Below, piece after piece: positions 136 through 13,642 of a DNA stretch of 13,861 nucleotides. The stretch is from Spirochaetaceae bacterium. GTDB taxonomy: Bacteria; Spirochaetota; Spirochaetia; SZUA-6; Bin103. Numbering within the stretch: position 1 is the stretch's first letter; every line of letters begins with the position of its first letter. The notes beneath the pieces are model-generated. The model had not been told where the DNA came from, searched no databases, and saw nothing but the letters and a program-made list of their open reading frames with translations. Made by a program: the position numbers and the translations under genes. Location of the stretch: contig JAPPKD010000231.1 in the NCBI GenBank assembly GCA_028820215.1, positions 12,442-26,302 of the forward strand, written 5' to 3'.

Positions 136-2097
136 TTACTGGCCCAGGAACAGTACGTCGAAGAACAGGTAGCTGGCCTCGGAGCTCAGCGGCTCGTCCG
201 GCACGTTGCCGACCCTGTTGTGGAAGTAGTAGAAGGAGACCTGCGGGATGTCGACCTTCGACTCCAGCGGAGAGATCGACCACAGCCCTTCGCTGAAGAT
301 CTGCACGACCTCCTGCTCGATCTTCTTCCTGGCGGCGAGGTCCATGGCACGCGGATACTCCTCGGACAACTCGTACAGCCTCTTCACTCCGTCCGGCGGC
401 TCCACTCCCTCGGCGCCGCCGGAGTGCAGCCAGCGCGCCCACGGGGTGGAGACGTGGTAGCCCTGCGGATTGCTCGGCACCACATGCGGAAAACGCGCGA
501 TGCTGGCGGTCGGTATGCCGCGTCCGATATCGACCGGGCCAACCAGGATGTCATAGTCGCCGGTGGTCAGCTTCTCCCCGTATGCATCGCCCGCGTAGGG
601 TCGGATCAGGAACTCGATGCCGGCCTTCTTGAGTTGCTCCTTGTAGATTTCGGACATGGAGACTTCGGCGCTCTTGTCGGTCTCGACGAGCCCGATCAGC
701 TCCAACGGCTTGCCGCTCGCGAAAGTGCGCGCGGTGCGGCCCGCGTTCCATGCCAAGCCCAGCTCATCGAGCATGCGGTTTGCCGCGTCGAGGTCGTACT
801 CCTTGTAGGGCTCGTCGGCCGGATGTACCAGGTCACCCGCCACCGGCGTCTGCGACAGCGTGTACTGGCCGCGGAACAGCAGGTTGTTGATTTCCTGCCC
901 GTCGATCGCCAGGGCCACGGCGCGCCGGAACTTGATGTCGTTGAACAGCTCTCGCCGCTCGGAGTCCTCGCTCGCAAAGTTGAAGTACACGGTGCCGTGA
1001 TACATGATCGCCGACATCGCCGCGTGCAGCCTGAAGTTGCCTGATTCCTCCGCGTTGCGCAGCACGCTGAAGTTCGAGATGTCGCCGAAGTCGCCGCGCA
1101 GGCCGAAGTCGATCTCGCCGGCCAGGCCCTGCAGCAGATAGGCGTCGCTGCCCATCCCCATCAGCGGAACGCGGATGCCGTCGATGTAGGGGAGCTGATT
1201 CCCCGCCACGTCCACCTTGTAGTAGTAGGGGTTGCGGCCGTACACGCCCAGGGTGTCGCTCTTGCTTTCCAGCCTCCACGGGTGAATGACCGGCAGCTCG
1301 GTGTTGAAGTTGCTCCAGATCACGTATTCCTTCCAATACGCCATCCAGGTGGTGAAACCGGCTTCCTTGGCCGCGCTCTCCGCCTTGTCGCCCGCCACGG
1401 CGGGGTGGAACTGGCCCATGTAGTGTTCGGGCAGGAACGAATCGGGGAACCAGCGCATCATATTGTTGGGCAGATTCGGGTAGGGGCCGGCGAACTGGAA
1501 CTGGAAGGTTGTGTCGTCGACCACGTTCAGGGTGGCCATCACCCCGCCGACCTTGAGGTTGCCGACGCCGTGCGGGTTGAGGTCCTTGTCGGAGGCGTCG
1601 TGGTCGAACCAGAACCGGATGTCCTCGGTGTCGAAGATCTCGCCGTCGCTCCAGCGGAGGCCGTCCCGCAAGCGGATGGTGTACACGGAGGCATCCGCAT
1701 TCGGCTCGTACGATGCGAACACGTTGGGCAACAGCGTTTCGCCGTTCACCGGTATGGTGAGACCCCACTGGCGCATGTACTCGTCGTTGATCCAGCCGGG
1801 ATCGCCGGGAATCACCAGGGTGCCGCCGTAGACGCCGATCTGATGGGCCGGCGCGATGACGATCGGATCGCTCGGCAGGCGCTCGCCGACCGGCGGCAGA
1901 TCGCCTGAGGCCACCAGCGCGGCCAGCACCGGCGCCTCGCCATAGGTCAGCGTGTGCCCGGTGGCCGCCTCGAATTCGGCGGGCGAGTTATAGAACTCCG
2001 GCACGCCCGACCCGACGAAGTCGTCCGCCTGCGCCAGCGTGAGGGCCAGCGGCAGCGCTGCCGCGACCAGAATCAGTCTCTTCAGAAATGTGTTCAT
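136..2097 (-). CDS. ABC transporter substrate-binding protein, family 5 (peptide/oligosaccharide type)
   Basis: A 653-residue periplasmic solute-binding protein of the SBP_bac_5 (DppA/OppA) family, which delivers peptides, nickel or oligosaccharides to an inner-membrane ABC importer. Residues 1-24 form a Sec signal peptide (positive MNTFLKR start, hydrophobic core, A-Q-A cleavage site) with no lipobox Cys, so a soluble periplasmic protein is expected. Family signatures are VYGGTL (89-94), a tail of the form YTIRLRDGLRWSDG (139-152) and the T-E-D-I-R-F-W-F stretch after it. The length is on the long side for the family. The ATG at 2097 has GAGG about 7 nt upstream. It lies 40 nt downstream of the sialidase gene on the same strand, suggesting co-transcription and a glycan ligand. 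No OppB/C/D/F partner is in the window. The C-terminal motif FYYFHNRVGNVPDEP recurs as a fossil at 3250-3292. Family call is secure; ligand is inference. Confidence 0.9.
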   Translation of the reverse strand: MNTFLKRLILVAAALPLALTLAQADDFVGSGVPEFYNSPAEFEAATGHTLTYGEAPVLAALVASGDLPPVGERLPSDPIVIAPAHQIGVYGGTLVIPGDPGWINDEYMRQWGLTIPVNGETLLPNVFASYEPNADASVYTIRLRDGLRWSDGEIFDTEDIRFWFDHDASDKDLNPHGVGNLKVGGVMATLNVVDDTTFQFQFAGPYPNLPNNMMRWFPDSFLPEHYMGQFHPAVAGDKAESAAKEAGFTTWMAYWKEYVIWSNFNTELPVIHPWRLESKSDTLGVYGRNPYYYKVDVAGNQLPYIDGIRVPLMGMGSDAYLLQGLAGEIDFGLRGDFGDISNFSVLRNAEESGNFRLHAAMSAIMYHGTVYFNFASEDSERRELFNDIKFRRAVALAIDGQEINNLLFRGQYTLSQTPVAGDLVHPADEPYKEYDLDAANRMLDELGLAWNAGRTARTFASGKPLELIGLVETDKSAEVSMSEIYKEQLKKAGIEFLIRPYAGDAYGEKLTTGDYDILVGPVDIGRGIPTASIARFPHVVPSNPQGYHVSTPWARWLHSGGAEGVEPPDGVKRLYELSEEYPRAMDLAARKKIEQEVVQIFSEGLWSISPLESKVDIPQVSFYYFHNRVGNVPDEPLSSEASYLFFDVLFLGQ

Positions 2098-2137
2098 GGA
2101 TACCTCGGCGGGACCTTCTCAGACCTGCCAGGGGGCG

Positions 2138-3229
2138 TCAACGGCTGCCGGCGACGTCCGCGCCGCGGGTGAGCCACTCCAGGTTGAAGCGCGCCAGGGT
2201 CAGCCGTTCGCAGGGGTCGTTGCCGGAACCGCTTTCGTACAGGCAGCAGACCATCCCGTCGTCCGTCACGCACAGATCGGAGTACGCCGCCGCGCCGTCG
2301 TGCAGCACCCGCGCAAGCGGCCAGCTCCGGCACCCGTCGTAGCTCAGGCGCACGGTCATGCGGCGCCGGGTGGTCGCCGCGGGGTTGCTGAACAGGATCC
2401 GCTGGCGTCCGTCGGTGCCGGGGTAGCGGCACATGCTCGCCTGACAGATCGGCTCGGGCAGCGCCACGTCGCGCACGATCGGAGAGAACGTCTCGCCGCC
2501 GTCGTTGCTCCACGCCACGGCACGGTGATGGCCGCCCCCGGCATCGCGCAGGAGGCTCTTGTTGCGGCAGTTGAGGCACAGCCAGCCGTCCTCGGTCTCT
2601 ACCCCGGTCGACTCGTTGGTGCCCTCGTCGGCGCTGCCGCCGATGGTCCAGGTCGCGCCGTGGTCGTCGGAGTGGATGACGTGGGAGTGGTAGGGATCTT
2701 GCGCCTCGTGGTGGCGGGCGACGATGTGGTCGCAGGGGATCAGGAGGCGGCCGGAGGCGAGTTGAATGCCGTGGCCGGGACCGGTGGCGTACCAGGTCCA
2801 GTCGGGCTGCTTGACCTGTGCCGTGATCTCGACCGGCTCCTCCCAGGTGCCGCCGTCGTCGTGGCTGGCGGTGACCCAGACCGTGCGCGGCGCCTGCCCC
2901 TGGCAGATCATGCGCTCGTCGCCGTCGCGGCGGTTCTTGCAGAACGGCAGCCAGATGCTTCCGGTATCGCGGTCCAGCACCGGCGCGGGATTGCCGCAGA
3001 CCCAGTCCGGCTCGGTGGCCACGAGCTGTGGCGGGGCGAAGGTCCTGCCGTGATCGCTTGAGCGCCGGACCAGGAGGTCGATCTGGTCCGAGTCCCCGCC
3101 GGTGTACTTGCGGGCCTCGCAGAATGCCAGCACGGTGCCGGCGGCGGTCACCGTAAGAGCGGGAATGCGGTAGCGGAAATAGCCGTCCTCGCCGCTGATC
3201 CAGAGTTGTTGGGTGTCGAGTCGCTGCAT
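2138..3229 (-). CDS. Exo-alpha-sialidase (neuraminidase), GH33-like BNR protein
   Basis: A 363-residue six-bladed-propeller sialidase, predicted to release terminal sialic acid from glycoconjugates. Seen: the (F/Y)RIP motif at residues 20-23 with the first triad arginine; Asp boxes SSDHGRTF (57-64), SHDDGGTW (122-129), SDDHGATW (187-194) and SNDGGETF (241-248), plus a degenerate SYDGCRSW (296-303); an N-E-S-T-G-V-E segment (205-211) likely carrying the catalytic Glu; R223; and A-Y-S-D-L (315-319) with the likely catalytic Tyr316. There is no signal peptide, so the enzyme looks cytoplasmic, unlike most secreted sialidases. I chose the ATG at 3229 because CGGAG sits a few nt upstream and the RIP motif follows at once. 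The longer reading frame upstream is residual binding-protein sequence. It lies 40 nt before the family-5 binding-protein gene. Substrate linkage cannot be judged. Confidence 0.9.
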   Translation of the reverse strand: MQRLDTQQLWISGEDGYFRYRIPALTVTAAGTVLAFCEARKYTGGDSDQIDLLVRRSSDHGRTFAPPQLVATEPDWVCGNPAPVLDRDTGSIWLPFCKNRRDGDERMICQGQAPRTVWVTASHDDGGTWEEPVEITAQVKQPDWTWYATGPGHGIQLASGRLLIPCDHIVARHHEAQDPYHSHVIHSDDHGATWTIGGSADEGTNESTGVETEDGWLCLNCRNKSLLRDAGGGHHRAVAWSNDGGETFSPIVRDVALPEPICQASMCRYPGTDGRQRILFSNPAATTRRRMTVRLSYDGCRSWPLARVLHDGAAAYSDLCVTDDGMVCCLYESGSGNDPCERLTLARFNLEWLTRGADVAGSR

Positions 3230-3249
3230 GGGACTCCGATTATGCCACC

Positions 3250-3292
3250 GCTCGTCCGGGGACGTTGCCGGCCCGGTTGAGGAAGTAGTAGA
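3250..3292 (-). pseudogene. Fossil of the 3' end of a second family-5 binding-protein gene
   Basis: Positions 3250-3292 match 192-233, near the 3' end of the binding-protein gene, with 38 identical bases by my hand alignment. Read on the minus strand, the fossil gives LYYFLNRAGNVP against FYYFHNRVGNVPDEP in the intact gene. One extra base at 3260-3261 shifts the frame just before the D-E codons, after which a stop is reached at about 3240. Similarity ends sharply at about 3293, eight bases before the ATG of the plus-strand acetyltransferase gene. So this is the stump of a paralogue whose body was deleted or replaced. It fills most of the 71-bp divergent gap between sialidase and acetyltransferase. 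Confidence 0.75.
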
Positions 3293-3300
3293 GCAGCGCC

Positions 3301-4026
3301 ATGCACACGCGAACCTCTCTGACCCGCGATCTGCGCGCGCTCGGCGTGCGCGAGGGCGACACGCTGTTCGTCCACTCATCGTTCAAGAGCCTGGGCGAGG
3401 TGGCCGGCGGCGCGCAGTCGGTCGTCGATGCCCTGATGGACGCGGTCGGTGACGGGCTGCTGCTGATGCCGTCCTTCAACCTGGACGGAGGGCGCGACTG
3501 GCGGGCGGCGAGCTGGGATGTGGAGAACGCGCCGTCATCGGTCGGCTGGCTCACCGAGTTCTTCCGCCGGATGCCGGGAACGGTGCGGTCGGACCACTAC
3601 TCGCACTCCGTCGCCGCGCGGGGCCGGGAGGCTCCGAGCTTCGTGGACGGCCACCGCCGCGACGAGGGGCTGCCGTCCCCCTGGGACCGTCCGCCGTGGG
3701 GACGGACCTACGGGACGCACTCGCCCATGATCCGGGCCCGCGACCGGGACGGGCGCCTCTTGATGCTGGGCGTGGACTACCACTCGTCGACCTACGTGCA
3801 CGTGGTGGAGGCGATGTGGTGGGAGGAGCGACGGCAGTCCGACCCGCGGGCGCGGTTCATGGGGCTCGACCGGCCGCGGCTGGGGGCGCTATGGGATCGC
3901 ACGGGCCGCCTGCGGCGGGGGCTGGTCGGAGACGCCGGGTGCCGGCTGTTCGGGATCCGCGACTACGTCGACACCCTGCTCGGCGTGGTGCGCGGCACGG
4001 GGACGCGATGGATCACCAGGAGCTGA
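3301..4026 (+). CDS. AAC(3)-family aminoglycoside N3-acetyltransferase-like protein
   Basis: A 241-residue member of the antibiotic_NAT (AAC(3)/YokD) family, which transfers acetyl from acetyl-CoA to an amine. Seen: T-R-x-S-L-T-x-D-L-R-A-L-G at the N-terminus, VHSSFKSLG (24-32), LLMPSFN (54-60), SDHYSHSVAARG (97-108), and GVDYHSSTYVHVVE (157-170), where H167 and E170 match the conserved C-terminal His/Glu region. It is a little shorter than typical AAC(3) resistance enzymes (about 260-280). Chromosomal homologues often have unknown amine substrates, so resistance should not be assumed. An in-frame TAG at 3289 fixes the start at or after 3301. No good ribosome site precedes it: the only purine run, GAGGAAG at 3279-3285, is about 15 nt away and belongs to the binding-protein fossil. 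It overlaps the dipeptidase-like gene by 19 nt. Confidence 0.85.
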   Translation: MHTRTSLTRDLRALGVREGDTLFVHSSFKSLGEVAGGAQSVVDALMDAVGDGLLLMPSFNLDGGRDWRAASWDVENAPSSVGWLTEFFRRMPGTVRSDHYSHSVAARGREAPSFVDGHRRDEGLPSPWDRPPWGRTYGTHSPMIRARDRDGRLLMLGVDYHSSTYVHVVEAMWWEERRQSDPRARFMGLDRPRLGALWDRTGRLRRGLVGDAGCRLFGIRDYVDTLLGVVRGTGTRWITRS

Positions 4027-4940
4027 TCGTCATCAACGGCGCCGAGGTGCTGGCGCGGCCGGACCAGCGCGGCGCGTACTGGCAGCGCATCCGGGCCGGC
4101 GGCACCACGGCATTCGCGGCGACCGCGGTCCGGTCACAGCTCCCGGCGTGGTTCAGGCGGTTCCGCGACGACGAGAGCCTCCTGCACGTGACCGAGCCGC
4201 GACACGTCCGCGAGGCGAAGGCGGACGGGCGGCTCGGTGTCATCTTCCATGCGCAGAAGCCGCCGCCGGAGTTGGCCGACGAACCCGACGAGGCGTGGAA
4301 CCTGCAACGGCTCGGCATCCGCATGCTGCAGCTCACCTACAACGATCACAGCCCGTTCGGGGACGGCTGCACGGAGGCCACCGACGACGGTCTGAGCGCC
4401 CTGGGCGCGCGGGTGGTGCGGGCGGCGAACGAGGCGGGGATCCTGCTCGACGTCTCGCACGCGGGCCGCCGGACCGCGATGGACGTCGTCGCGGCATCGG
4501 CGGAGCCGGTGGTCGCCAGCCACTGCAACGCGGACGCGGTCTGCCACAACCCGCGCAACCTCGCCGACGAGGCGATCGCCGCCATCGCGGAGCGCGGCGG
4601 CGTGATCGGCGTCACCGCCTTTCCCAGCATGGTCCGCTGGCAGGAGCCGACGCTGGAGCGGATGCTCGACCACATCGACCACGTCGCGGCGCTGGTGGGT
4701 CCGGAGCACGTCGGCTTCGGCCTGGACTTCTGCTCGATCCCGCAGGCGAGCTGGGATTCCGGCCGCTTCAGCCCGGCCGCCTACCCGCCGCCTCCCTGGA
4801 TCTTTCCGCCAGGCATCTCCGGGCCGGAGGAGGTACCCAACCTGACCGAAGGCCTCGTTCGGCGCGGCTACGGTGAGGCGGAGGTCGGCGGCATCATGGG
4901 AGCTAACCTGCTGCGGCTGTTCGAGACGGCCTGGCGCTGA
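4008..4940 (+). CDS. Membrane dipeptidase-like protein (peptidase M19 family), atypical metal site
   Basis: A 310-residue TIM-barrel protein of the M19 (renal dipeptidase) family, whose members are zinc enzymes cleaving dipeptides, often with D-residues. Seen: RAGGTTAF (29-36), QLTYNDHSPFGDGC (108-121), LLDVSHAG (146-153, H151), SHCNADAVCHNPRNLAD (171-187, H172) and GFGLDF (236-241, D240), matching the family's two C-terminal His ligands and the Asp. The usual N-terminal D-G-H-N-D ligand pair is absent (VINGAEV at 8-14), and the bridging Glu region reads IFHAQKPPP (79-87). Activity may therefore be altered. I chose the ATG at 4008 because GGGGA lies just upstream and the family fold begins there; the longer frame upstream is arginine- and glycine-rich shadow sequence. 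There is no signal peptide, so it is probably cytoplasmic. The 19-nt overlap with the acetyltransferase gene implies translational coupling. It ends 15 nt from the convergent permease gene. Confidence 0.85.
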   Translation: MDHQELIVINGAEVLARPDQRGAYWQRIRAGGTTAFAATAVRSQLPAWFRRFRDDESLLHVTEPRHVREAKADGRLGVIFHAQKPPPELADEPDEAWNLQRLGIRMLQLTYNDHSPFGDGCTEATDDGLSALGARVVRAANEAGILLDVSHAGRRTAMDVVAASAEPVVASHCNADAVCHNPRNLADEAIAAIAERGGVIGVTAFPSMVRWQEPTLERMLDHIDHVAALVGPEHVGFGLDFCSIPQASWDSGRFSPAAYPPPPWIFPPGISGPEEVPNLTEGLVRRGYGEAEVGGIMGANLLRLFETAWR

Positions 4941-4955
4941 TCCCGGCCGGTTCGT

Positions 4956-5879
4956 TCAGCCCTTCAGCGATCCCATCATCACGCCCTTGACGAAGTACTT
5001 CTGCAGGAACGGGTAGACGAAGACGATCGGCCCGATGGTGAGCAGGACGGTGGCCGCCTGCGCGGCCTTCGGCGGGATGCGCATCAGCTCCCGGAACTGC
5101 TCGGACTGGCGCAGCTCCTCGGTCAGCTCGGAGATGAACTCGTCGGTCTGCAGCAGGCTGAGGTCCATCATCAGGTCGCGGATCAACTCCTGCAGCACGC
5201 GCTTGTCGTCGTCGTTGACGAAGATCAGCGGCAGGATGAAATCGTTCCAGTGGCCGACGGCCGCGAACAGCGCGACGGTCGCCAGCACCGGCTTCGACAG
5301 CGGAATGATGATCCGGAACAGCACGCGCCAGTAGCCCGCGCCGTCGATGACCGCGGACTCCTCCAGCGATTCGTCGATCGTCATCAGGAAGTTGCGGCAG
5401 ATGATGATGTAGAAAACGCTCATCGCCGGCAGCAACAACAGAATGAGCCGGGTGTTGATCAGGTCGAGCCGGCGTACGACCAGGTAGAGGGGGATCAGAC
5501 CGCCCTGGAAGAACAGGGTGAACACGAACAGGAACGTCAGCACCGCGCGGCCGGGCAGCAGCCTCTTGGACAGCGCGTAGGCGGCGCTGAAGGTGACCAG
5601 CAGGGTCGCCGCCGTGCCCACCACCGTGCGGAAGATGGTGTTGAAGTAGGCCAGCCCGATCGTGTCGTCCTGCAGGACGAACCCCCACGCTTCCAGGTGC
5701 CAGGCGTCCAGCCAGATCCGGAGCCGCAGGCTGTTGACCGCGTCGATGGAAGAGAACGACTGCAGGATCAGCGTCCAGAACGGGTAGGCGATCGACAGGG
5801 CGAACAGCGCCAGGAACAGGTAGTTGACGCCGTCGAACAGCTTGCCGGTAACCGAGGTGCGGCTTGCTACGATCGCCAT
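4956..5879 (-). CDS. Carbohydrate ABC transporter permease, YtcP/LplC-like (MalG type)
   Basis: A 307-residue inner-membrane permease of the binding-protein-dependent transport family, second subunit of a sugar importer. Hydrophobic segments lie near residues 16-40, 83-105, 112-134, 143-165, 196-220 and 275-295. The cytoplasmic EAA loop that docks the ATPase is visible as EESAVIDGAGYWRVLF followed by IIPLSKP (173-197). The stretch G-H-W-N-D-F before segment 5 and the long loop with F-R-E-L-M-R-I-P-P are typical of the YtcP branch, which partners LipO-type family-1 binding proteins and takes up complex oligosaccharides. The ATG at 5879 has AGGA about 6 nt upstream and sits 6 nt after the stop of the LplB-like gene, so the two are one operon. 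No binding protein or ATPase gene adjoins them. Confidence 0.92.
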   Translation of the reverse strand: MAIVASRTSVTGKLFDGVNYLFLALFALSIAYPFWTLILQSFSSIDAVNSLRLRIWLDAWHLEAWGFVLQDDTIGLAYFNTIFRTVVGTAATLLVTFSAAYALSKRLLPGRAVLTFLFVFTLFFQGGLIPLYLVVRRLDLINTRLILLLLPAMSVFYIIICRNFLMTIDESLEESAVIDGAGYWRVLFRIIIPLSKPVLATVALFAAVGHWNDFILPLIFVNDDDKRVLQELIRDLMMDLSLLQTDEFISELTEELRQSEQFRELMRIPPKAAQAATVLLTIGPIVFVYPFLQKYFVKGVMMGSLKG

Positions 5880-5885
5880 CCGGTC

Positions 5886-6866
5886 CTACCAGACACTGAA
5901 GTCGTTGTAGCGGCGGGTGATCTGGTTGACGACCACCAGCAGCACCAGGCCCAGCACGTTCTGAAACAGCCCGACCGCGGTGGTGTAATCGAAGTCGCCG
6001 CCCTGGATGCCGACCCGGTAGATGTAGGTCTCCATGATGTCGCCGACTTCGTACACGGCCGCGTTGTACATCATGAACACGTGCTCGAAGCTCTGCTCGA
6101 ACAGGTTGCCCAGCCGCAGCAGGAACAGGATGGTGATGACCGGCACCAGCGACGGCAGCGTGATGTGAACGGCACTCTGCCAGCGGCTGGTGCCGTCGAT
6201 GGCTCCCGCCTCGTAGAGTTGCGGGTCGATCCCGGACAGGGCGGCCAGGTAGATGATCGAACCCCAGCCGACGCTCTGCCAGATGGCGGTGCCGACCAGC
6301 AACGCCCGGAACGTCTCGACGGTGGTGAACCAGTTGACCGGGTCAAGGCCGAGCTGCGTGAACAGCCACCCGGCGAAACCCGTGCTCGGCGACAGGAACT
6401 CCCGCAGGATGCCGGAAAGCACCACCCAGGACATGAAGTGGGGGAGATAGCCGATGGATTGCACGCTGCGCTTGTAGACGGTGTGCCGCACCTCGTTGAG
6501 CAGCAGCGCCAGGACGATCGGGGCGGGAAACGTGATCCCCAGGTGCAGCAGGCTGAGGATGACGTTGTTGCGGAACACCCGCAGGAAGAACGGCTCCCGG
6601 AACAGGCGGCGGAAGTGGGCGAAGTCGTTCCAGGTGCTGCCCAGGATGCCGTCGTAGAAGTTGAAGTCCAGGAACGAGATCGACACGCCCCACATCGGCG
6701 CGTACTTGAACAACGCCAGGAGCGCGAACGCCATCAGCAGCAGGCCGTAGAACGATCGCATGCGCCACGCCCTGGCGCGGGTCTGACGGCGCAGGACGCG
6801 CTTGTAGCCGGCCCTCGACTCGGCCGTCGACAGGTGAGGCGCGGTCTGGGGTGCGATGTTCGCCAT
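5886..6866 (-). CDS. Carbohydrate ABC transporter permease, LplB-like (MalF type)
   Basis: A 326-residue inner-membrane permease and heterodimer partner of the YtcP-like subunit. After a basic cytoplasmic N-terminus, the first hydrophobic segment spans about 39-62 (with F-K-Y-A-P-M-W-G, a hallmark of the LplB branch), followed by I-S-F-L-D-F. The EAA loop reads YEAGAIDGTSRWQSAV then ITLPSLVP (218-242), and the C-terminus is RRYNDFSVW, typical of LplB proteins. I prefer the ATG at 6866 (MANIAP) to a TTG 57 nt upstream because the extra residues are only basic and low-complexity; neither start has a clear Shine-Dalgarno sequence. It is the first gene of the two-permease operon. The usual upstream LipO-like binding-protein gene is missing, and a DUF4019 gene lies there instead. 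Confidence 0.92.
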   Translation of the reverse strand: MANIAPQTAPHLSTAESRAGYKRVLRRQTRARAWRMRSFYGLLLMAFALLALFKYAPMWGVSISFLDFNFYDGILGSTWNDFAHFRRLFREPFFLRVFRNNVILSLLHLGITFPAPIVLALLLNEVRHTVYKRSVQSIGYLPHFMSWVVLSGILREFLSPSTGFAGWLFTQLGLDPVNWFTTVETFRALLVGTAIWQSVGWGSIIYLAALSGIDPQLYEAGAIDGTSRWQSAVHITLPSLVPVITILFLLRLGNLFEQSFEHVFMMYNAAVYEVGDIMETYIYRVGIQGGDFDYTTAVGLFQNVLGLVLLVVVNQITRRYNDFSVW

Positions 6867-6961
6867 GTACGGGCAGGAGGCCGGAAGCCGCGCGATTCTA
6901 CGCCGGCCGGTACGTGCCGGCAAGGCGAACTGCCGCGCTCTCCCGGTCCTTCAGGCGGCCG

Positions 6962-7309
6962 CTACCGGATGAAGTACCCGCTCACCCGCCAGGCATCGTC
7001 GTCCCACGACGCCGTGACGGTTTCCGTCGCCGCCTGTTTGCGCCCGTAGGACGCGGAGAACCGTATGACCCAGTAGCGGCCGTCGGGCGCGCCCGGAAGG
7101 GTCTCGTGGTAGTCGGCGCCGTCGAGGGACCGCGACTGGGGAGCGCCCATCGGTTCCAGCGCCGACCGAAGCGACTTTGCAAGCTGACCCGGGCTCACGG
7201 CCCCGCGCAGCAGCGCGGAGCCGCCCTCCCAGCACGCCTGGTAATCGCCTGAGTCGAGAAGGGCCAGCCACTCGTGGGCCGCCGCTGCCGCATCGTCCCG
7301 GTCAGCCAT
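6962..7309 (-). CDS. DUF4019 domain protein
   Basis: A 115-residue protein that looks like a member of the DUF4019 family (function unknown). Seen: A-A-H-E-W-L-A-L-L-D-S-G-D-Y near residues 11-24, a central S-P-G-Q-L-A-K-S-L-R-S segment, LPGAPDGRYWVIRFSASY (residues 71-88), then E-T-V-T followed by W-R-V-S-G-Y-F-I-R at the C-terminus, all in the family's usual order. No signal peptide is visible, although many relatives are exported. The ATG at 7309 has a strong GAGGAG close upstream, overlapping the stop of the antitoxin-toxin gene, which ends 9 nt earlier. The two are therefore probably co-transcribed. Whether DUF4019 has any role with the toxin system or is just a downstream passenger cannot be told. 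Confidence 0.8.
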   Translation of the reverse strand: MADRDDAAAAAHEWLALLDSGDYQACWEGGSALLRGAVSPGQLAKSLRSALEPMGAPQSRSLDGADYHETLPGAPDGRYWVIRFSASYGRKQAATETVTASWDDDAWRVSGYFIR

Positions 7310-7318
7310 CCTCGCTCC

Positions 7319-7933
7319 TCACCAACAGGTCTCGACCGGATATCGATCGAGATTCCGGTCCGACGTCAGCAGGCTCATGCCGCCCACCATAGCCTGCGCG
7401 ACGAGCAGCCGGTCGAAGGGATCACGGTGGATCCACGGCAGGTCGATCAGCCTCTGCAGATGCGGCTTGTCGATGGGCAGCCACTCGACGCGGTTCCGCG
7501 TCATCTCTCGATCCGCGGTCGCCTGCCAGCCGGAGGCCAGCCGCAGCTTGCCGATCGACACCTTGATGCAGATCTCCCAATAGCTCGCCGCGCTCAGGAA
7601 CAGGTCGTGCTCGCTCGATTCGAGGAAGGAGCGCGCCTCGGCGCTGAGCTTCTGTGGTGCATCCATGCTCCACAGGAATACCTGCGTGTCGATCAGGAGT
7701 CGGATGGCGCGTACGCTCCGAAAATCGTCGATCTCGGCGTTGAAGTCCTCGGCCATGTACTCCACCAGCCCGGGCGCTCCGCCCAGCCTTCGCGGCTGCG
7801 GCGTGCCGTCGACGGCGACCAGCCGCACTACCGGCTTGTCGCCGCGCGCGATGATCACCTCTTCACCCGCCTGTGCCCGATGGATCAAGCGCGACAGGTG
7901 GGTCTTGGCCTCGTGCACGGTCACTTGTGCCAT
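7319..7933 (-). CDS. Fused Phd/YefM antitoxin - PIN (VapC-like) toxin
   Basis: One open frame encodes what is normally two proteins (204 residues from this ATG). Numbered from the GTG four codons upstream: residues 5-75 are a Phd/YefM-type antitoxin (MAQVTVHEAKTHLSRL, then G-E-E-V-I-I-A-R-G-D-K-P-V-V-R-L-V), ending in EDFNAEIDDF as free antitoxins do. Residues 81-208 are a PIN endoribonuclease with LLIDTQVFLW (D86), SYWEICIK (E124), HRDPFDRLLVAQ (D175/D178) and LLTSDRNL (D196), so all four acidic metal-binding positions seem intact. No stop or start codon separates them: at the expected toxin ATG the codon is ATC (residue 81, AIRLLID). I chose the ATG at 7933 since MAQVTV is the usual antitoxin start; GTG at 7945 is the alternative. 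If translated as one chain, the toxin is tethered to its own inhibitor. A degraded or frozen module is the main alternative. Confidence 0.85.
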   Translation of the reverse strand: MAQVTVHEAKTHLSRLIHRAQAGEEVIIARGDKPVVRLVAVDGTPQPRRLGGAPGLVEYMAEDFNAEIDDFRSVRAIRLLIDTQVFLWSMDAPQKLSAEARSFLESSEHDLFLSAASYWEICIKVSIGKLRLASGWQATADREMTRNRVEWLPIDKPHLQRLIDLPWIHRDPFDRLLVAQAMVGGMSLLTSDRNLDRYPVETCW

Positions 7934-7943
7934 GGTGCGACTC

Positions 7944-7972
7944 ACAATGACTTAGTCATAAGACTTAGTCAA
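7944..7972 (-). promoter_or_regulatory. Probable autoregulated promoter/operator of the antitoxin-toxin gene
   Basis: Two perfect copies of GACTTAGTCA lie at 7949-7958 and 7962-7971 with a 13-bp period. Each core is a palindrome (GACT-T-AGTC; the first copy extends to TGACT-T-AGTCA). The stretch is strikingly AT-rich for this DNA. On the minus strand, TTGACT (7972-7967) and CATTGT (7949-7944) are spaced 17 bp, a plausible -35/-10 pair that would place the operator inside the promoter. Paired palindromes upstream of Phd/YefM genes are typical of antitoxin autorepression. The operator assignment is inference from position and symmetry. Confidence 0.6.
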
Positions 7973-7983
7973 CAAGTGGCCGC

Positions 7984-8979
7984 TCAGGAAATGCGGCCGG
8001 TGATCAGGCCGCGCGGCTCCTCGCCACGGGCGATGCGGTCCAGGTTGTCGGCGGCGAAGCGGGCCCGGTTGTCGGTGGTCGACTGCGTGCCGCCGGCCGT
8101 GTGCGGCGTCGCGTACACGTTGGGGAGCGAGAACACCGGGTGGTTGCTGTCCGGGGGCTCGGACTCGAACACGTCAAGCCCGGCGCCGCCCAGGTTCCCG
8201 GCCAGGAGCGCGTTGTAGAGCGCCTCCTCGTCGATCAGCGCCCCGCGCGCGACGTTGATCACCCACGCGGTCGGCTTCAGCAGGCCGATGCGGCGCCGGT
8301 CGATGATATGGCGGGTGCTCGCATTCAGATGCAGGTTCACCGACAGGATGTCGCACTCGGCGATCACCTCGTCCATGTCCTCGGGCGATCCCAGGAACTC
8401 CAGGGGCACCTGGTCGAGCACCTCGGTGGGGATCATGCGCACGTCGATGGCGGAGACCTTGATCCCGAACGGATGGGCGCGCAGGGCGAGCTGCTGGCCG
8501 CTGGCGCCGTAGCCGACGATAGCCAGCTTCTTGCCGTCCAGCCGGATGCCCTCCGGGTGGTAGTAGGTGCCGCCGTCGAAGTTGACAGCCGCCGCCTTGT
8601 ACTGGGCGGCAAGCAGCAGGATGAACATCATGGCGTTCTGGGCCAGCGCTTCCGCGCTCAGGTAGCCGGGGCAGTGCGAGAGCGTGATCCCCCTGGCCAG
8701 GATGTGCTCCACCTCGACGTGGTCCAGGCCGTTGGTCTGCACCTGGAAGTGGCGGACGCCGGCCGCCGCGGCAAGGTCGATCCTCTCCTTGCTCGCGTTG
8801 CCGCCCATGTCGACCACGACCTCGATGCCGTCGAATTGTGGCGCCGCCGGCGTCGTGTCGTCGAACGCTCTGGTGTCGTGCCGTTCGCTGACCGCCGCCA
8901 GGTGGCGGTACGTGCGGCCTTCGGTAACCGGTACGCCCGGTTGTGTAAGAAAGAGAACTCGTAGGCGTCGTTCAGCCAT
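7984..8979 (-). CDS. D-isomer-specific 2-hydroxyacid dehydrogenase
   Basis: A 331-residue NAD-dependent oxidoreductase that interconverts 2-hydroxy and 2-keto acids. Seen: the Rossmann motif VGYGASG (155-161) with an acidic residue at the end of the second strand (SAIDV, D179), favouring NAD over NADP. The catalytic triad is in place: R245 in NVARGALIDE, E274 in DVFESEPP and H293 in TPHTAGG. Length is normal for the family, and no signal peptide is present. The ATG at 8979 has no strong ribosome site. It overlaps on the opposite strand the first possible ATG of the lactonase gene (CATG at 8977-8980), so the two units are divergent. Similar proteins include phosphoglycerate, glyoxylate/hydroxypyruvate and D-lactate dehydrogenases; the substrate cannot be fixed. 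Its position suggests it serves the same pathway as the divergent operon. Confidence 0.9.
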   Translation of the reverse strand: MAERRLRVLFLTQPGVPVTEGRTYRHLAAVSERHDTRAFDDTTPAAPQFDGIEVVVDMGGNASKERIDLAAAAGVRHFQVQTNGLDHVEVEHILARGITLSHCPGYLSAEALAQNAMMFILLLAAQYKAAAVNFDGGTYYHPEGIRLDGKKLAIVGYGASGQQLALRAHPFGIKVSAIDVRMIPTEVLDQVPLEFLGSPEDMDEVIAECDILSVNLHLNASTRHIIDRRRIGLLKPTAWVINVARGALIDEEALYNALLAGNLGGAGLDVFESEPPDSNHPVFSLPNVYATPHTAGGTQSTTDNRARFAADNLDRIARGEEPRGLITGRIS

Positions 8980-9067
8980 GTCGGGCGCATCATGGACGGT
9001 GATCGGTGGGTGCTGCTACCCTCCACTCGCCATCGCCAGCACCGGCATCAGTGCCAAACCCCTGACC

Positions 9068-10087
9068 GTGTACGTCGCGCTCAGCGGAGAAGACCGCGTG
9101 TCGCGGCTGGCGCTCGACCCCGACGACGGGGTGCTCCGGCCCGCCGGCTCGTACGCGCTGGCCGGCGGGCCCGCTCCCATGGCGTTCGATCCTCATCAGC
9201 GCTTCGTGTACGTCAGCCGCCGCACCGACGAGTGCGTCAGCACCCTGACGGTCGAACCGGACGGGAGCCTGACCCCTGCGGGCGAGGTGGCGACCCCATC
9301 GGGCGCCTGCTACGTGTCCACCGACCGCACCGGCCGCTTCCTGCTGACCGCCTACTACGCGGACGGCGCCGTGGCCGTGCACGCCATCGGCGACGACGGC
9401 GTGGCCGCGGGCCCGCCGCTCTGCCGGATCGACATCGGCACCGGCGCCCATATCCTGGAGACCGACCGGACCAACCGCTGGGCCTTCTCCTGCACGATCG
9501 CCAGCCCGGGCGGGTCGAACGCCGTGCACCAGTTCCTGTTCGACGAGCGGACCGGCACGCTGTGGCCCAACACGCCGCCGCGGCTGACCGGCGAGAACGG
9601 CTGCGGGCCGCGCCACTTCTGCTTCCATCCGCGGCTGCCGCTGATGTACGTCTCCAACGAGCAGGGCGGGAGCGTCACGGCCTACCGCCTGGACACCGGA
9701 AACGGCACGCTGACCCGGTGGCACACCGTCTCCACGCTGCCATCCGGCTACGACGGTGAGAACACCTGCTCGCAGATCCGCATCACCCCCGACGGGGCGA
9801 ACCTGTTCGCCCCCAACCGCGGCCACGACAGCATCGCCAACTTCGCGCTGGACGCCGAAACCGGCGCGCTGGCGCTGCGCGAGATCGTGCCCACGGAACC
9901 GGTGCCGCGTGCCTGCCAGCTCGACCCTGCGGGCCGCCTGCTGCTGGCAGCCGGGCAGGAATCGGGCCGGATCGCCGCCTACCGCATCGGGCCGGCGGAC
10001 GGGCGGCTGACCCCGCTCGAGGTGAGTGAGGTGGGCGAGTCGCCCGTGTGGATACTGTTTCGATCGGACAAGGAGATGCAGGCATGA
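9068..10087 (+). CDS. Lactonase family beta-propeller protein (6-phosphogluconolactonase YbhE type)
   Basis: A seven-bladed beta-propeller of the lactonase/Pgl (YbhE) family, 339 residues from this start, within the family's usual range. Members hydrolyse sugar lactones. Seen: YVALSGEDRVSRL at the start, GPRHFCFHP and MYVSNEQGGSVTAYRLD in the middle, GYDGENTCSQIRITPDG and LFAPNRGHDSIANF, then LLAAGQESGRIAAYRI and G-E-S-P-V-W-I-L near the end, in the order expected for YbhE proteins. The start is uncertain. GTG at 9068 begins exactly where the propeller begins and leaves an 88-bp divergent gap. ATG at 8978 and GTG at 8999 are in frame, but add a low-quality N-terminus. None has a clear Shine-Dalgarno sequence. 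The stop overlaps the next start by 4 nt (ATGA at 10084-10087), implying coupled translation. Substrate is unknown; the neighbours suggest a lactone made by the MocA-type enzyme. Confidence 0.85.
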   Translation: MYVALSGEDRVSRLALDPDDGVLRPAGSYALAGGPAPMAFDPHQRFVYVSRRTDECVSTLTVEPDGSLTPAGEVATPSGACYVSTDRTGRFLLTAYYADGAVAVHAIGDDGVAAGPPLCRIDIGTGAHILETDRTNRWAFSCTIASPGGSNAVHQFLFDERTGTLWPNTPPRLTGENGCGPRHFCFHPRLPLMYVSNEQGGSVTAYRLDTGNGTLTRWHTVSTLPSGYDGENTCSQIRITPDGANLFAPNRGHDSIANFALDAETGALALREIVPTEPVPRACQLDPAGRLLLAAGQESGRIAAYRIGPADGRLTPLEVSEVGESPVWILFRSDKEMQA

Positions 10088-10941
10088 CCGTGGGAGTAGA
10101 AGGCTATCGCTACCGGCTGGTGCCCGACTGGGGCGACCAGGCCATCCGCGCGGAGATCGGCATCGTCACGGCGGTGGCGACCGACGCGAACGACCGGGTG
10201 TACGTGGCCGACCGGGAGCCGAACGACGTGATCCGGGTGTTCGAGCGCGACGGCACCTACGTGGAGACCTGGGGCCGGGACTTCCTGAAGCGGCCGCACT
10301 CGATCTGGATCGGGCCCGACCAGCTCGCCTACATCACCGACATCATCCACCACACCGTGGAGATCTGCCGGCTGGACGGCACCGTCGTGCAGACCATCGG
10401 CACCCGCGGCAAGCCCGGCGAGCCCGGCGCACCGTTCAACCAGCCGACCTGGGCGGTGCGGGCGCCGTGGGGTGACCTGTACGTATCGGACGGCTACGGC
10501 CAGGAGCGCATGCACCGCTTCACGCCGGAGGGCGAGCTGGTGCGCTCCTGGGGAGTCGAGGGCGCCGGCCCCGGCCAGTTCCAGCTCCCGCACTGCGTGA
10601 AGGTCGACCCGCGCGGGCGGCTGCTCGTCATCGACCGCACCAACGCGCGCATCCAGGTGTTCGACCGGGAAGGCGACTTCGTCGAGGAGTGGACGGACGT
10701 GAAGGCGGCCAACGACCTGGTGATCGACGACCGGCACGTCATCCATCTGGCCGAGTGCGACGGGACGGTGGCGCTGGTCGATCTGGACGGCCGCGTCATC
10801 GGCCGCTGGGGACAGAAGGGGGACGAGCCCGGCCGGTTCAAGGGTTCCCCGCACGGCATCTGGGAGGACTCGCACGGCGACCTCTACGTCTGCGAGGTCC
10901 CGTTCGACCGCGACCGGCTGCAGAAGTTCGAGCGGATATGA
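10084..10941 (+). CDS. NHL-repeat beta-propeller protein, peptidyl-alpha-hydroxyglycine lyase-like
   Basis: A 285-residue NHL-type propeller with about six repeats. Typical repeat strings are YVADREPNDVIRVFERDG, LYVSDGYGQERMHRFTPEG, GPGQFQLPHCVKVDPRG and LLVIDRTNARIQVFDREG, followed by WGQKGDEPGRFKGSPHG. This pattern matches bacterial proteins related to the lyase domain of peptidylglycine alpha-amidating enzymes, but a binding or structural role is equally possible and I do not assert lyase activity. No signal peptide is present, which is unusual for NHL proteins of this group and suggests a cytoplasmic role. The ATG at 10084 has a good AAGGAG about 8 nt upstream and overlaps the lactonase stop. 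Its own stop overlaps the next ATG (ATGA at 10938-10941). It is therefore translated in step with both neighbours. Confidence 0.85.
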   Translation: MTVGVEGYRYRLVPDWGDQAIRAEIGIVTAVATDANDRVYVADREPNDVIRVFERDGTYVETWGRDFLKRPHSIWIGPDQLAYITDIIHHTVEICRLDGTVVQTIGTRGKPGEPGAPFNQPTWAVRAPWGDLYVSDGYGQERMHRFTPEGELVRSWGVEGAGPGQFQLPHCVKVDPRGRLLVIDRTNARIQVFDREGDFVEEWTDVKAANDLVIDDRHVIHLAECDGTVALVDLDGRVIGRWGQKGDEPGRFKGSPHGIWEDSHGDLYVCEVPFDRDRLQKFERI

Positions 10942-12050
10942 GCATGTATGGCGTTGCTCTGATCGGCACCGGCCGCGTCGGCTACCAGTTCACCTTCAGC
11001 GACCTGCCCGACAACCACGCCGCCGCGGTGGCGGCGAGCGACCGCTGCCGGCTGGTGGCGGGCGTCAACCGCGGGCGCGAGAAGCTCGTGGAGTTCGGTG
11101 AGCGCTTCGGCGTGGAGGCGCTGTATCACGACTACCGGAAGATGCTCGCCGAGACCTCGCCCGAGATCTGCATCGTCGCCACCCACCCCGAGCTGCACTG
11201 CGCGATGGTGGAAGACTGCGCGGCGGCGCCGTCCACGCGCGCGATCATCTGCGAGAAGCCGATGGCTCTCTCGCTGGAAGAGTGCGACCGCATGATCGCC
11301 GCCTGCGAGCGCGCGGGCGTGTTGCTGCAGATCAACCACAACCGGCGTTGGCACCCGGAGTGGATCCTGGCCAAGGAGCTGGTGTCAGGCGGCGCCATCG
11401 GCGAGCTCAACTACATCCGGTGCTCGATGGACGGCGGCAAGCCGACGCCGTCGTGGCGCAGCGAGAACGAGGGGCCTCTGCTGCATGACTTCACCCACTA
11501 TTTCGACCTGATGGACCTGTTCGCCGGCGAAGTGGAGTGGCTGTGCGGCATGGCCGAGCAGCGCTCCCGGCCGTGGGCGGTGGAGGACTTCAGCGCCGCG
11601 TTCATGAAGTTCGGCTCCGGTGTAACCGGCATCGTGCACGGGGCGGAGCTCACCGACTACGAGAATCATGCGTTCATGCTGAGCGGCTCGACCGGCATGA
11701 TCGACATGCAGGGCGAGCAGGTGCGGCTTCTCCGGTCGCACCCCGGCGACGTCGAGCCCGACAGCGGCTTCGCGTGGCGGGAGCTGGCCGAGTCCGCTGT
11801 CGAGCGGCCGGCCCCGGCCTCGACCTACTGCACCGCCCTCGACGAGTTGCTGGACGCGCTGGACGGCACGGGGACGCTGCGCAGCGACGGCCGCGTCGGG
11901 CGCCGCTCCATGGAGATGATCATGGCGATCTACCAGTCGCAGCTCGACGGCAACCGCCCGGTGAGCTTCCCGGTCACCATGGCCGGCTCGGGGGCGGAGG
12001 CGCTGCGCGCGGCCGGCCACTTCGTCGAGCGGAGCGACGATCGGGACTGA
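10938..12050 (+). CDS. Gfo/Idh/MocA family oxidoreductase
   Basis: A 370-residue NAD(P)-dependent dehydrogenase of the glucose-fructose oxidoreductase / inositol dehydrogenase family, acting on sugars or polyols. Seen: the nucleotide-binding motif IGTGRVG (9-15), IVATHPELH (79-87), the signature CEKPMALSLEECD (105-117, with K107 the usual catalytic Lys), NHNRRWHP (133-140), and the C-terminal-domain motif LLHDFTHYFDLM (181-192), where D184 and H187 align with the conserved substrate-binding Asp/His. The ATG at 10938 overlaps the NHL-gene stop. The longer frame upstream is shadow sequence within that gene. It ends 14 nt before the first dioxygenase gene. In operons of this kind it typically oxidises a ring hydroxyl to a ketone or lactone, which would explain the lactonase; the exact substrate is unknown. 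Confidence 0.92.
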   Translation: MSMYGVALIGTGRVGYQFTFSDLPDNHAAAVAASDRCRLVAGVNRGREKLVEFGERFGVEALYHDYRKMLAETSPEICIVATHPELHCAMVEDCAAAPSTRAIICEKPMALSLEECDRMIAACERAGVLLQINHNRRWHPEWILAKELVSGGAIGELNYIRCSMDGGKPTPSWRSENEGPLLHDFTHYFDLMDLFAGEVEWLCGMAEQRSRPWAVEDFSAAFMKFGSGVTGIVHGAELTDYENHAFMLSGSTGMIDMQGEQVRLLRSHPGDVEPDSGFAWRELAESAVERPAPASTYCTALDELLDALDGTGTLRSDGRVGRRSMEMIMAIYQSQLDGNRPVSFPVTMAGSGAEALRAAGHFVERSDDRD

Positions 12051-12064
12051 CGAGGGGGAAGGCG

Positions 12065-12871
12065 ATGGCGATGACCGACTCGGAACGGTTCCACTTCGAT
12101 CTGGCCGGGTTCATGGTGCGGCCGGCGATCCTCAACACGGACGAGATCGAGGCGATCGTCGACCAGATCGACCGCATCAAGCACGATCCCGAATCGCTGC
12201 CGCCGGCCCATCGGGCGGTGCCGGGCGGGCCGTCGAACGTGCTCATCGACCACCCGCAAGTCATCGACGTGCTGCACGACGTGATCGGCCCGGACGTCCG
12301 CCTGGAGTCGAGCTCCAGCGTGTGGCGCTTGCAGGGAGAGGCGCACGGCGACCTGCACGGCGGCGGGCCGCAGCAGGGGGATCCGATCTTCGGCTACCGG
12401 GTCCAGAACGGCCGCATCCACGCCGGCATGGTGCGCGTCGTGTTCGAGCTGACCGACGTCGCGAAGGGCGACGGCGGCACCCACTTCATCGCCGGCAGCC
12501 ACAAGAGCAACTTTCCCATGCACCCCGACCACATGTCGCTGGAGCCGGGCAAGCGCAGCCCGTTCCTGACGACCTATGAGTGCCCGGCCGGCAGCGCCAT
12601 CTTCTTCACCGAGAACGTGTGCCACGCCGGACCGGAGTGGCAGCGCGACACGCCGCGGGTGGCGGTGCTCAACGCCTACGCCCACCTCGCCACCCACTGG
12701 CACCGGCTGACCCTGCCCACGGCAGTCCTGGAGTCGCTGCCGCGCGAAAAGCAGGCGTATTTCCGCCCGCCGTGGATCGCCGACTTCCGCACCAGGCCGG
12801 CCACCCACAACACCATCGAGCGCTTCGTCGGCAACGACGAGGAGATGGTCAGCGTCGACCATCAGCCCTGA
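12065..12871 (+). CDS. Phytanoyl-CoA dioxygenase (PhyH) family protein 1
   Basis: A 268-residue protein of the PhyH family of Fe(II)/2-oxoglutarate oxygenases, which hydroxylate or oxidatively cleave small molecules. Candidate ligands are H94-G-D96 in GEAHGDLHGGG for the facial-triad HxD, and H187 in ENVCHAGPEW for the distal His, with R198 in PRVAV as the likely 2-oxoglutarate anchor. GGTHFIAGSHKSNF (138-150) is the usual GSH region. The HxD is embedded in an unusual L-H-G-G-G context rather than the common W-H-x-D, so the metal site deserves checking. ATG 12065 and ATG 12071 are both possible; a purine-rich GAGGGGGAAGG at about 12052-12062 precedes them and fits either. It lies 14 nt after the MocA-type gene and 21 nt before a second PhyH gene, in one operon. 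Substrate unknown. Confidence 0.87.
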   Translation: MAMTDSERFHFDLAGFMVRPAILNTDEIEAIVDQIDRIKHDPESLPPAHRAVPGGPSNVLIDHPQVIDVLHDVIGPDVRLESSSSVWRLQGEAHGDLHGGGPQQGDPIFGYRVQNGRIHAGMVRVVFELTDVAKGDGGTHFIAGSHKSNFPMHPDHMSLEPGKRSPFLTTYECPAGSAIFFTENVCHAGPEWQRDTPRVAVLNAYAHLATHWHRLTLPTAVLESLPREKQAYFRPPWIADFRTRPATHNTIERFVGNDEEMVSVDHQP

Positions 12872-12892
12872 CGGGCAGCGGAGGACAGCGGC

Positions 12893-13642
12893 ATGGGAAG
12901 CGCGATGCTGAGCGAAGCGGAGCGGTCCCACCTCGACGAGCGCGGCTTCGTGGTCCTGGAGGACGCCATCTCGGCCGATCACGCGGATGCCCTGCGCGAA
13001 CGGTCTATGGCCCTGGCGCGGCGGGAGCGCGGGACGTCGGGCGAATTCGTGTATCTGGAAGACAAGGCGCAACGGGTCTGGAACCTGGTCGACAAGGGCG
13101 AGGTGTTTGAGCGGGCGATTCAGCACCCGCGCGTGCTCGGCGCGATGACCTGGCTGCTCGGCGCGGACTGCACGCTGAGCTCGTTCACGGTCAACGTGAT
13201 CGGCGCCGGCGCACCGGCCGGCGGCCTGCACATCGACCATCCGCTGGGGACCATGCCGACGCCCCGTCCGGCGTTCCCGTTGTCCGCGAACAGCATCTGG
13301 TTCCTCGACGACTTCACGGCGAAGAACGGCGCCACGCGCTGCGTTCCCGGCAGTCACCGGCGGCTCGAAGGGCTGCCGGAGCCGGGCGTGCGCTATGAGG
13401 ACGAGTTGCAGGTCACCGGGCCGAAGGGCTCCGTCATGATCACCAACGGAGCGCTATGGCACGCGTCGTCGGCGAACGGCACCGACCGCGAACGCGTGTG
13501 CCTGCTCGGTTTCTTCTGCCGCGCGTTCCTGAAGCCGCAGCAGGATCAGATCAGGATCGTCTCCGACGAGGTGGTCGCGCGCGCCACCCCGACCCTGAAG
13601 CGCCTGCTCGGCTTCGACTCCAGGCCGAACACGCTCGCCTGA
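12893..13642 (+). CDS. Phytanoyl-CoA dioxygenase (PhyH) family protein 2
   Basis: A 249-residue Fe(II)/2-oxoglutarate dioxygenase of the PhyH family. The metal triad is clear: H113-I-D115 in GLHIDHPLG and H190 in NGALWHASSANG. R201 in D-R-E-R-V-C-L-L is the likely 2-oxoglutarate anchor, and ATRCVPGSHRR (147-157) is the usual motif between them. The N-terminus (L-S-E-A-E-R-S-H-L-D-E-R-G-F-V-V-L-E-D) is typical. The ATG at 12893 has GGAGG 8 nt upstream, a strong site. It is only distantly similar to the PhyH protein encoded just upstream, so the two are not a recent tandem copy and probably catalyse different steps or form a heteromer. It is the last gene of the operon, and its stop at 13642 is followed by a convergent gene fragment 49 nt away. 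Confidence 0.92.
   Translation: MGSAMLSEAERSHLDERGFVVLEDAISADHADALRERSMALARRERGTSGEFVYLEDKAQRVWNLVDKGEVFERAIQHPRVLGAMTWLLGADCTLSSFTVNVIGAGAPAGGLHIDHPLGTMPTPRPAFPLSANSIWFLDDFTAKNGATRCVPGSHRRLEGLPEPGVRYEDELQVTGPKGSVMITNGALWHASSANGTDRERVCLLGFFCRAFLKPQQDQIRIVSDEVVARATPTLKRLLGFDSRPNTLA

What the first reader, a model, noticed from the sequence alone, without database searches (positions are those of the whole stretch)
7319..7933. Antitoxin and PIN toxin fused into one polypeptide
Phd/YefM antitoxins and VapC-like PIN toxins are normally encoded by two overlapping genes. Here one uninterrupted frame carries a complete antitoxin, including its C-terminal E-D-F-N-A-E-I-D-D-F, directly followed by a complete PIN domain with D86, E124, D175/D178 and D196. 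The usual toxin start codon is ATC. A toxin covalently tied to its inhibitor in 1:1 ratio could not be freed by simple antitoxin proteolysis. The protein may instead be an autoregulated RNase, a self-neutralised immunity gene, or a module released by cleavage at the S-V-R-A linker.
Basis: partly seen in the sequence, partly recalled or inferred. Interest (0 to 1): 0.75.

Follow-up and report, generated by a model that had tools for sequence, protein, structure and literature searches.

The report
Toxin and antitoxin joined by frameshift
An ordinary two-gene bacterial toxin-antitoxin pair reads here as one long protein because of a one-letter length difference at the gene boundary; the closest relatives found have a separate antitoxin, so this looks like a lone variant and not a new kind of system.

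Summary
In detail: on the minus strand, 7319-7933 is one open frame (204 aa from ATG 7933) with a Phd/YefM antitoxin domain followed by a PIN domain with its acidic residues. The 13 closest antitoxin clusters (77-94% identical, 73-88 aa) end 8-13 residues after the shared DDF motif, all with GAYAPS, and the unaltered window still spells FGAYAPSDS-stop in the neighbouring frame. So the fusion is a net one-base length difference at the end of the antitoxin gene, and the 'S-V-R-A linker' is an out-of-frame reading of conserved codons. The two closest PIN clusters (84-88%) are 115-aa PIN-only proteins called from an internal Met. All 8 genome loci have two separate frames. Fused toxin-antitoxin proteins (EzeT, CapRel, Phd-RelE, HicA-HicB) are in print. 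Real mutation and assembly error could not be told apart: no reads and no close relatives' DNA. The most interesting leftover is how this clade starts its toxin without a standard start codon.

The parts
7319..7933 (-). Fused open reading frame, 204 aa from ATG 7933 (alternative GTG start at 7945, 208 aa), stop included
7721..7933 (-). Phd/YefM antitoxin part, residues 1-71, ending in ..EDFNAEIDDF
   Evidence: Pfam PF02604; 77-94% identical to 13 stand-alone antitoxin clusters
7706..7720 (-). Junction codons R-S-V-R-A: an out-of-frame reading of codons that in relatives encode the antitoxin tail; a net one-base length difference from the relatives lies about here
7693..7722 (-). Remnant of the relatives' antitoxin end in the neighbouring frame: FGAYAPSDS then TGA (7695-7693)
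   Evidence: unaltered translation; same end as P0128
7716..7719 (-). GGAG, a Shine-Dalgarno-like site 10 nt before the ATC codon (read by eye, not scored)
   Evidence: sequence
7703..7705 (-). ATC codon (residue 77) at the place of the toxin start codon in relatives; possible weak internal start
7694..7696 (-). CTG codon overlapping the remnant TGA; alternative non-standard toxin start
7322..7705 (-). PIN (VapC-like) toxin part, residues 77-204; D82, E120, D171, D174, D192
   Evidence: Pfam PF01850; best-ranked structure matches are VapC
7664..7666 (-). Internal ATG (residue 90), first standard start in the PIN frame after the junction; the start given to relatives P0003 and P0004
7949..7971 (.). 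Two direct copies of the near-palindrome GACTTAGTCA, starts 13 nt apart, just upstream of the ORF: candidate operator
   Evidence: palindrome judged by eye

Best explanation
This is a VapBC-like type II toxin-antitoxin module of the Phd/YefM + PIN class whose two overlapping genes have been joined, in this record, by a net one-base length difference at the very end of the antitoxin gene (shown by comparison with relatives' proteins and by the remnant tail in the neighbouring frame). The product is predicted to be a single chain: an N-terminal Phd DNA-binding/dimerisation domain, the antitoxin's neutralising segment up to DDF, then a PIN RNase with its acidic residues. Inferred mechanism: the Phd part binds the two GACTTAGTCA repeats and represses its own promoter, while the neutralising segment holds the tethered PIN domain inactive in cis or across the dimer, so the module is locked. 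It is most likely a recent, lone, nearly neutral allele on the way to loss and not a selected new architecture. Some free PIN could still arise from internal starts (ATG 7756, ATC 7705), which is inference only.
For: 13 of 13 closest antitoxin clusters (46 member sequences by the table) are 73-88 aa and continue FGAYAPS.. to their end. The unaltered window reads FGAYAPSDS-stop in the next frame. The two closest PIN clusters are 115 aa, PIN-only. 8 of 8 genome loci have two frames: 7 out of frame, 1 in frame with a stop between. The model gives two confident domains and its lowest confidence at the junction, residues 71-73. Pairwise PIN differences avoid conserved columns, which suggests constraint until recently. 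Altered relatives exist: antitoxins P0140, P0148, P0193 and P0123, which reads as a Phd domain followed by broken PIN pieces.
Against: Both halves look intact: the window departs from only 3 of 46 PIN columns conserved at 90% or more and 2 of 26 antitoxin columns conserved at 80% or more, so decay is not visible. The join lies after the whole conserved antitoxin core, the spot a functional fusion would need. Two other, diverged Phd-PIN single-chain proteins exist (P0075, P0115). No DNA of the close relatives was read. In-cis inhibition, repression and RNase activity are all untested.
Confidence: 0.65

Rival explanations
1. Sequencing or assembly error: the organism has the usual two overlapping genes and the extra base exists only in the record.
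For: The window is the only copy of this fusion seen; close relatives are separate. No whole genome is held for it. A run of four T stands next to the junction.
Against: Thirteen other protein genes in the 13.9-kb window have Pfam matches in open frames, 10 of 13 over nearly the whole profile; the exceptions are a permease (43-182 of 184), the M19 dipeptidase (61-318 of 319) and an NHL repeat. So indels do not look frequent in this record; the site is not a long homopolymer.
Confidence: 0.2
2. A functional single-chain toxin-antitoxin kept by selection, working like EzeT or CapRel: inhibited in cis until a trigger, protease or partner frees the PIN domain.
For: Both domains conserved; operator-like repeats upstream; diverged Phd-PIN single chains P0075 and P0115; single-chain toxin-antitoxins with activity are in print.
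Against: No other copy of this fusion among the 120 listed or the 5 hits; the linker is out-of-frame sequence; the antitoxin tail with GAYAPS, kept in 13 of 13 closest relatives, is replaced.
Confidence: 0.1
3. The two genes are still used separately at the protein level: the fused frame is translated, but free PIN toxin is made from an internal start (ATC 7705 with GGAG upstream, or ATG 7756).
For: ATC sits at the relatives' start position and GGAG lies 10 nt before it; ATG 7756 is in frame.
Against: ATC is a very weak start in general (recalled, no call); an ATG 7756 product would keep part of the inhibitory segment; nothing was measured.
Confidence: 0.15

Closest known systems
Phd/YefM-PIN (VapBC-like) type II toxin-antitoxin modules
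   Same: Same two domains in the same order, same acidic residues, operator-like repeats upstream; PHD-PIN is a recognised pairing (the table of PMC2701414 lists PIN with the number 276 under PHD; passages seen)
   Different: Relatives have two genes; here one frame, and the toxin has ATC in place of a standard start
EzeT (single-chain zeta toxin of E. coli)
   Same: N-terminal antitoxin joined to C-terminal toxin in one chain, said most likely to have evolved from a two-gene operon (PMC4826407, PMC4803016, passages)
   Different: Different toxin (kinase) with reported activity; the present case is a lone frameshift
Phd-RelE fusion of Ralstonia eutropha
   Same: Phd antitoxin fused to a toxin; PMC4826407 leaves open whether it is a dead end (passage)
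   Different: RelE toxin, and truncations thought to abolish activity; here both halves look intact
CapRel-SJ46
   Same: Fused toxin-antitoxin (PMC9712102, passages)
   Different: Toxin first, antitoxin last, phage-triggered; different domains
Slr1999 HicA-HicB fusion of Synechocystis 6803
   Same: Fusion without fused homologues elsewhere, according to the authors (PMC4963859, passage)
   Different: HicAB domains
Database proteins P0075 and P0115
   Same: Phd-PIN single chains, 203 and 209 aa, 42% and 41% identical over 99% and 98%
   Different: Diverged, with other junctions; their DNA was not seen

Membership tests
Phd/YefM antitoxin | PF02604 above its curated cut-off | tested here: met
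   37.3 bits against 29.8, residues 1-42
Phd/YefM antitoxin | NCBIfam phd_fam TIGR01552 above its cut-off | tested here: not met
   20.1 bits against 20.8, just below
Phd/YefM antitoxin | Complete C-terminal neutralising tail | tested here: inconclusive
   Core to DDF kept; the tail after it, with GAYAPS in 13 of 13 closest relatives, is replaced
VapC-like PIN toxin | PF01850 above cut-off and the acidic residues present | tested here: met
   63.9 bits against 23.6; D82, E120, D171, D174, D192
VapC-like PIN toxin | PIN fold like solved VapC | tested here: met
   Best Foldseek matches are Shigella VapC, E 1.1e-5, of 29 matches at 0.001 or better; by sequence no PDB match at 1e-3
VapC-like PIN toxin | Toxic RNase activity | not testable with these tools
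   needs an assay
Two-gene type II toxin-antitoxin operon | Two separate genes with own start codons | tested here: not met
   One open frame; ATC at the toxin start position
Single-chain (fused) toxin-antitoxin | Both domains in one open frame | tested here: met
Single-chain (fused) toxin-antitoxin | Fusion conserved in close relatives | tested here: not met
   13 of 13 closest antitoxin clusters separate; could not return proteins as long as the fusion, could and showed none close among its 120 listed
Single-chain (fused) toxin-antitoxin | Inhibition in cis | not testable with these tools
   needs expression tests

The most novel reading that the evidence does not exclude
The whole clade makes its PIN toxin without a standard start codon: either from AUC (7705, behind a GGAG) or CUG in a CTGA overlap with the antitoxin stop, or by a -1 frameshift from the antitoxin frame that yields an antitoxin-toxin fusion as a normal minor product, which this record has then made permanent. 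Support: the two closest PIN clusters (23 and 7 members) both begin at the window's internal Met 90; in the window no ATG/GTG/TTG lies in the corresponding upstream frame between the TGA at 7865 and the junction; and the differences between the two clusters avoid conserved columns (1 of 46 against 14 of 68, p 0.004), so the toxin seems to be translated. The relatives' DNA was not seen.
Probability: 0.12. Interest if true: 0.6.

Novelty: new member of a known kind. Interest (0 to 1): 0.27.

Why it matters
It shows how easily a two-gene toxin-antitoxin pair in G+C-rich DNA can become one open frame, and so warns against reading a single fused ORF as a new system. If the side observation holds, the clade would be a natural case of a toxin kept at low level by a non-standard start codon or by frameshifting, which could be tested directly.

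Tried and rejected
Own genome: none is held, so copy number and host could not be read. Host: the TA query against even samples of the phyla of five relatives showed no member of the window's clade (best identity 50-51%): at 1e-30, 6 of 392 genomes, one of them the centre G001; at 1e-40, 1 of 201, the centre G003 itself, 0 of 194, 0 of 240 and 1 of 235. share genomes.

Mobile element: no match in phages; in viral contigs 4 stretches matched a pattern and none was confirmed. Plasmid records hold relatives (521 records, identity 60-80% in 5 and lower in 516). The 20 rows are all in two pieces. Of the 60 rows, five near-full-length matches were in one piece (H27, H37, H47, H48, H53): H27 and H37 have a stop between the halves; H47, H48 and H53 were judged from their two-gene annotation only.

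Antitoxin-region search for fused proteins: 5 hits of 28 candidates, none annotated with PIN. It also missed P0075 and P0115, so its silence is weak evidence. S-V-R-A cleavage site: rejected because those codons are an out-of-frame reading. Sigma-70 promoter and terminator scan of 7250-8050: none found. Literature: five searches (20 of 35, 8 of 8, 15 of 30, 15 of 69 and 10 of 11 papers listed) showed no paper whose title or abstract start names a Phd-PIN fusion; of five papers passages were seen and none was read whole, so this is not proof of absence.

Structure: the alignment for the model misplaces the first residues of several PIN proteins, so the junction part of the model is not evidence. 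I found no coordinate file in the box, so docking of the antitoxin on the PIN was not tested. The p-values are nine uncorrected tests on related sequences. Its reference rows were 116 of the 118 further PIN hits listed (the two fusions left out) and 104 of the 107 antitoxins P0141-P0247 (P0148, P0193 and P0211 left out).

Full report
What is there. The frame lies on the minus strand, 7319-7933, 204 aa from ATG 7933 (GTG 7945 would give 208 aa). Pfam finds PhdYeFM_antitox at residues 1-42 and PIN at 80-199. D82, E120, D171, D174 and D192 are present; the finding's numbers are four higher because they count from the GTG. There is no stop between the domains. ATC 7705 encodes residue 77, where relatives have the first codon of the toxin (M[K/R]LLLDT).

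What the relatives show. A full-length search gave 3743 proteins at E 1e-3 or better; the best 120 were listed. The two nearest are 115-aa PIN-only proteins, P0003 (88%, 23 members) and P0004 (84%, 7 members), both beginning MDAPQ, the window's Met 90. Two of the 120 carry both domains, P0075 and P0115, at 42% and 41%. A search with residues 1-79 gave 621 proteins, 120 listed; by length that search could not return a 204-aa fusion. I fetched 20 of the 120. The 13 closest (P0128-P0140, 77-94% identical, 73-88 aa, 46 member sequences by the table) share the core to DDF (KDF in P0135) and then continue GAYAPS and two to seven more residues to their end.

The cause of the fusion. Read without change, the neighbouring frame of the window gives ..TIFGAYAPSDS-stop, with the TGA at 7695, the same end as P0128. 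The window thus still carries the relatives' antitoxin end, but in the other frame: a net one-base length difference between the DDF codons and the toxin joins the two genes. R-S-V-R-A is those codons read out of frame.

Wider layout. In 8 of 8 loci from public genomes the two halves are separate: 7 with the toxin in another frame, 1 (L001) in frame with a stop between (in L008 the match covers residues 1-174 only). Of 8 further loci printed (L009 and L015 appear to repeat L001 and L003; the antitoxin of L013 was not seen) none is fused. Plasmid relatives looked at have two annotated genes or a stop between. In one of them, Sinorhizobium L023, the toxin's first residues look frame-broken, and P0123 reads as a Phd domain followed by broken PIN pieces, so damage around this junction is not unique.

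Is it real? No reads are available. Thirteen other genes of the window have Pfam matches in open frames, 10 of 13 over nearly the whole profile, which speaks against a poor sequence but does not exclude a single error.

How it would work. Upstream lie two copies of GACTTAGTCA, starts 13 nt apart, a plausible operator for the Phd domain (inference). The model has two confident domains (mean pLDDT 90.4, pTM 0.63); residues 41-80 are weaker and 71-73, the junction, weakest. Of 29 structure matches at E 0.001 or better the best-ranked are VapC, with FitB further down and a few other PIN-like or unrelated entries; that they cover the PIN half is inferred from the aligned lengths. I infer a self-repressing, self-inhibited, inert chain. 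In one search the window departs from 3 of 46 strongly conserved PIN columns and 2 of 26 antitoxin columns, so the allele is either young or maintained.

The start-codon puzzle. In the window, the first ATG/GTG/TTG in the PIN frame after the junction is Met 90; the frame that leads into the PIN in the two-gene layout has none between TGA 7865 and the junction. That P0003 and P0004 are both called from this Met suggests that they too lack a standard start. Yet their differences avoid conserved columns (P0003 against P0004: 1 of 46 conserved and 14 of 68 variable columns differ, p 0.004; window against P0003 2 of 46 and 12 of 68, p 0.042; window against P0004 3 of 46 and 15 of 68, p 0.035; columns conserved at 80% or more). 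A GGAG lies 10 nt before the ATC (by eye). This is a lead, not a result.

Comparison with what is known. PHD-PIN pairs are a recognised class (PMC2701414, passages). Single-chain toxin-antitoxins are in print: EzeT and a Phd-RelE fusion (PMC4826407, passages; PMC4803016, passages), HicA-HicB in Synechocystis (PMC4963859, passage) and CapRel (PMC9712102, passages). The present case works, if at all, like EzeT; it is not shown to be such a system.

Verdict.

Noticed in passing
window 7703-7705 and 7694-7696, minus strand; proteins P0003, P0004: The clade's PIN toxins seem to lack a standard start codon (ATC at the expected place, CTG overlapping the antitoxin stop) yet look constrained.
   Followed up: partly
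proteins P0134, P0136, P0138: Antitoxin variants of 88 aa with a longer tail (..SMRW); only two PIN clusters above 62% identity were among the 120 listed, so these may be orphan antitoxins.
   Followed up: no
proteins P0140, P0148, P0193: Shortened or altered relatives of the antitoxin, one (P0140) seen in 9 contigs of up to 7.39 Mb, suggesting decay of this module in its host group.
   Followed up: no
L023 (Sinorhizobium medicae plasmid): The toxin of a related pair appears frame-broken at its first residues; no feature is annotated there in the record.
   Followed up: partly
protein P0123: A 291-aa open frame with a Phd domain followed by pieces of a PIN domain in broken frames.
   Followed up: no
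window 3301-4026, plus strand: Gene of the aminoglycoside 3-N-acetyltransferase family (Antibiotic_NAT) in a transporter neighbourhood; substrate unknown.
   Followed up: no
window 136-13642: Neighbourhood of ABC transporter parts, BNR-repeat protein, M19 dipeptidase, DUF4019, 2-hydroxyacid dehydrogenase, lactonase, NHL protein, Gfo/Idh/MocA and two PhyH proteins; host not identified.
   Followed up: partly
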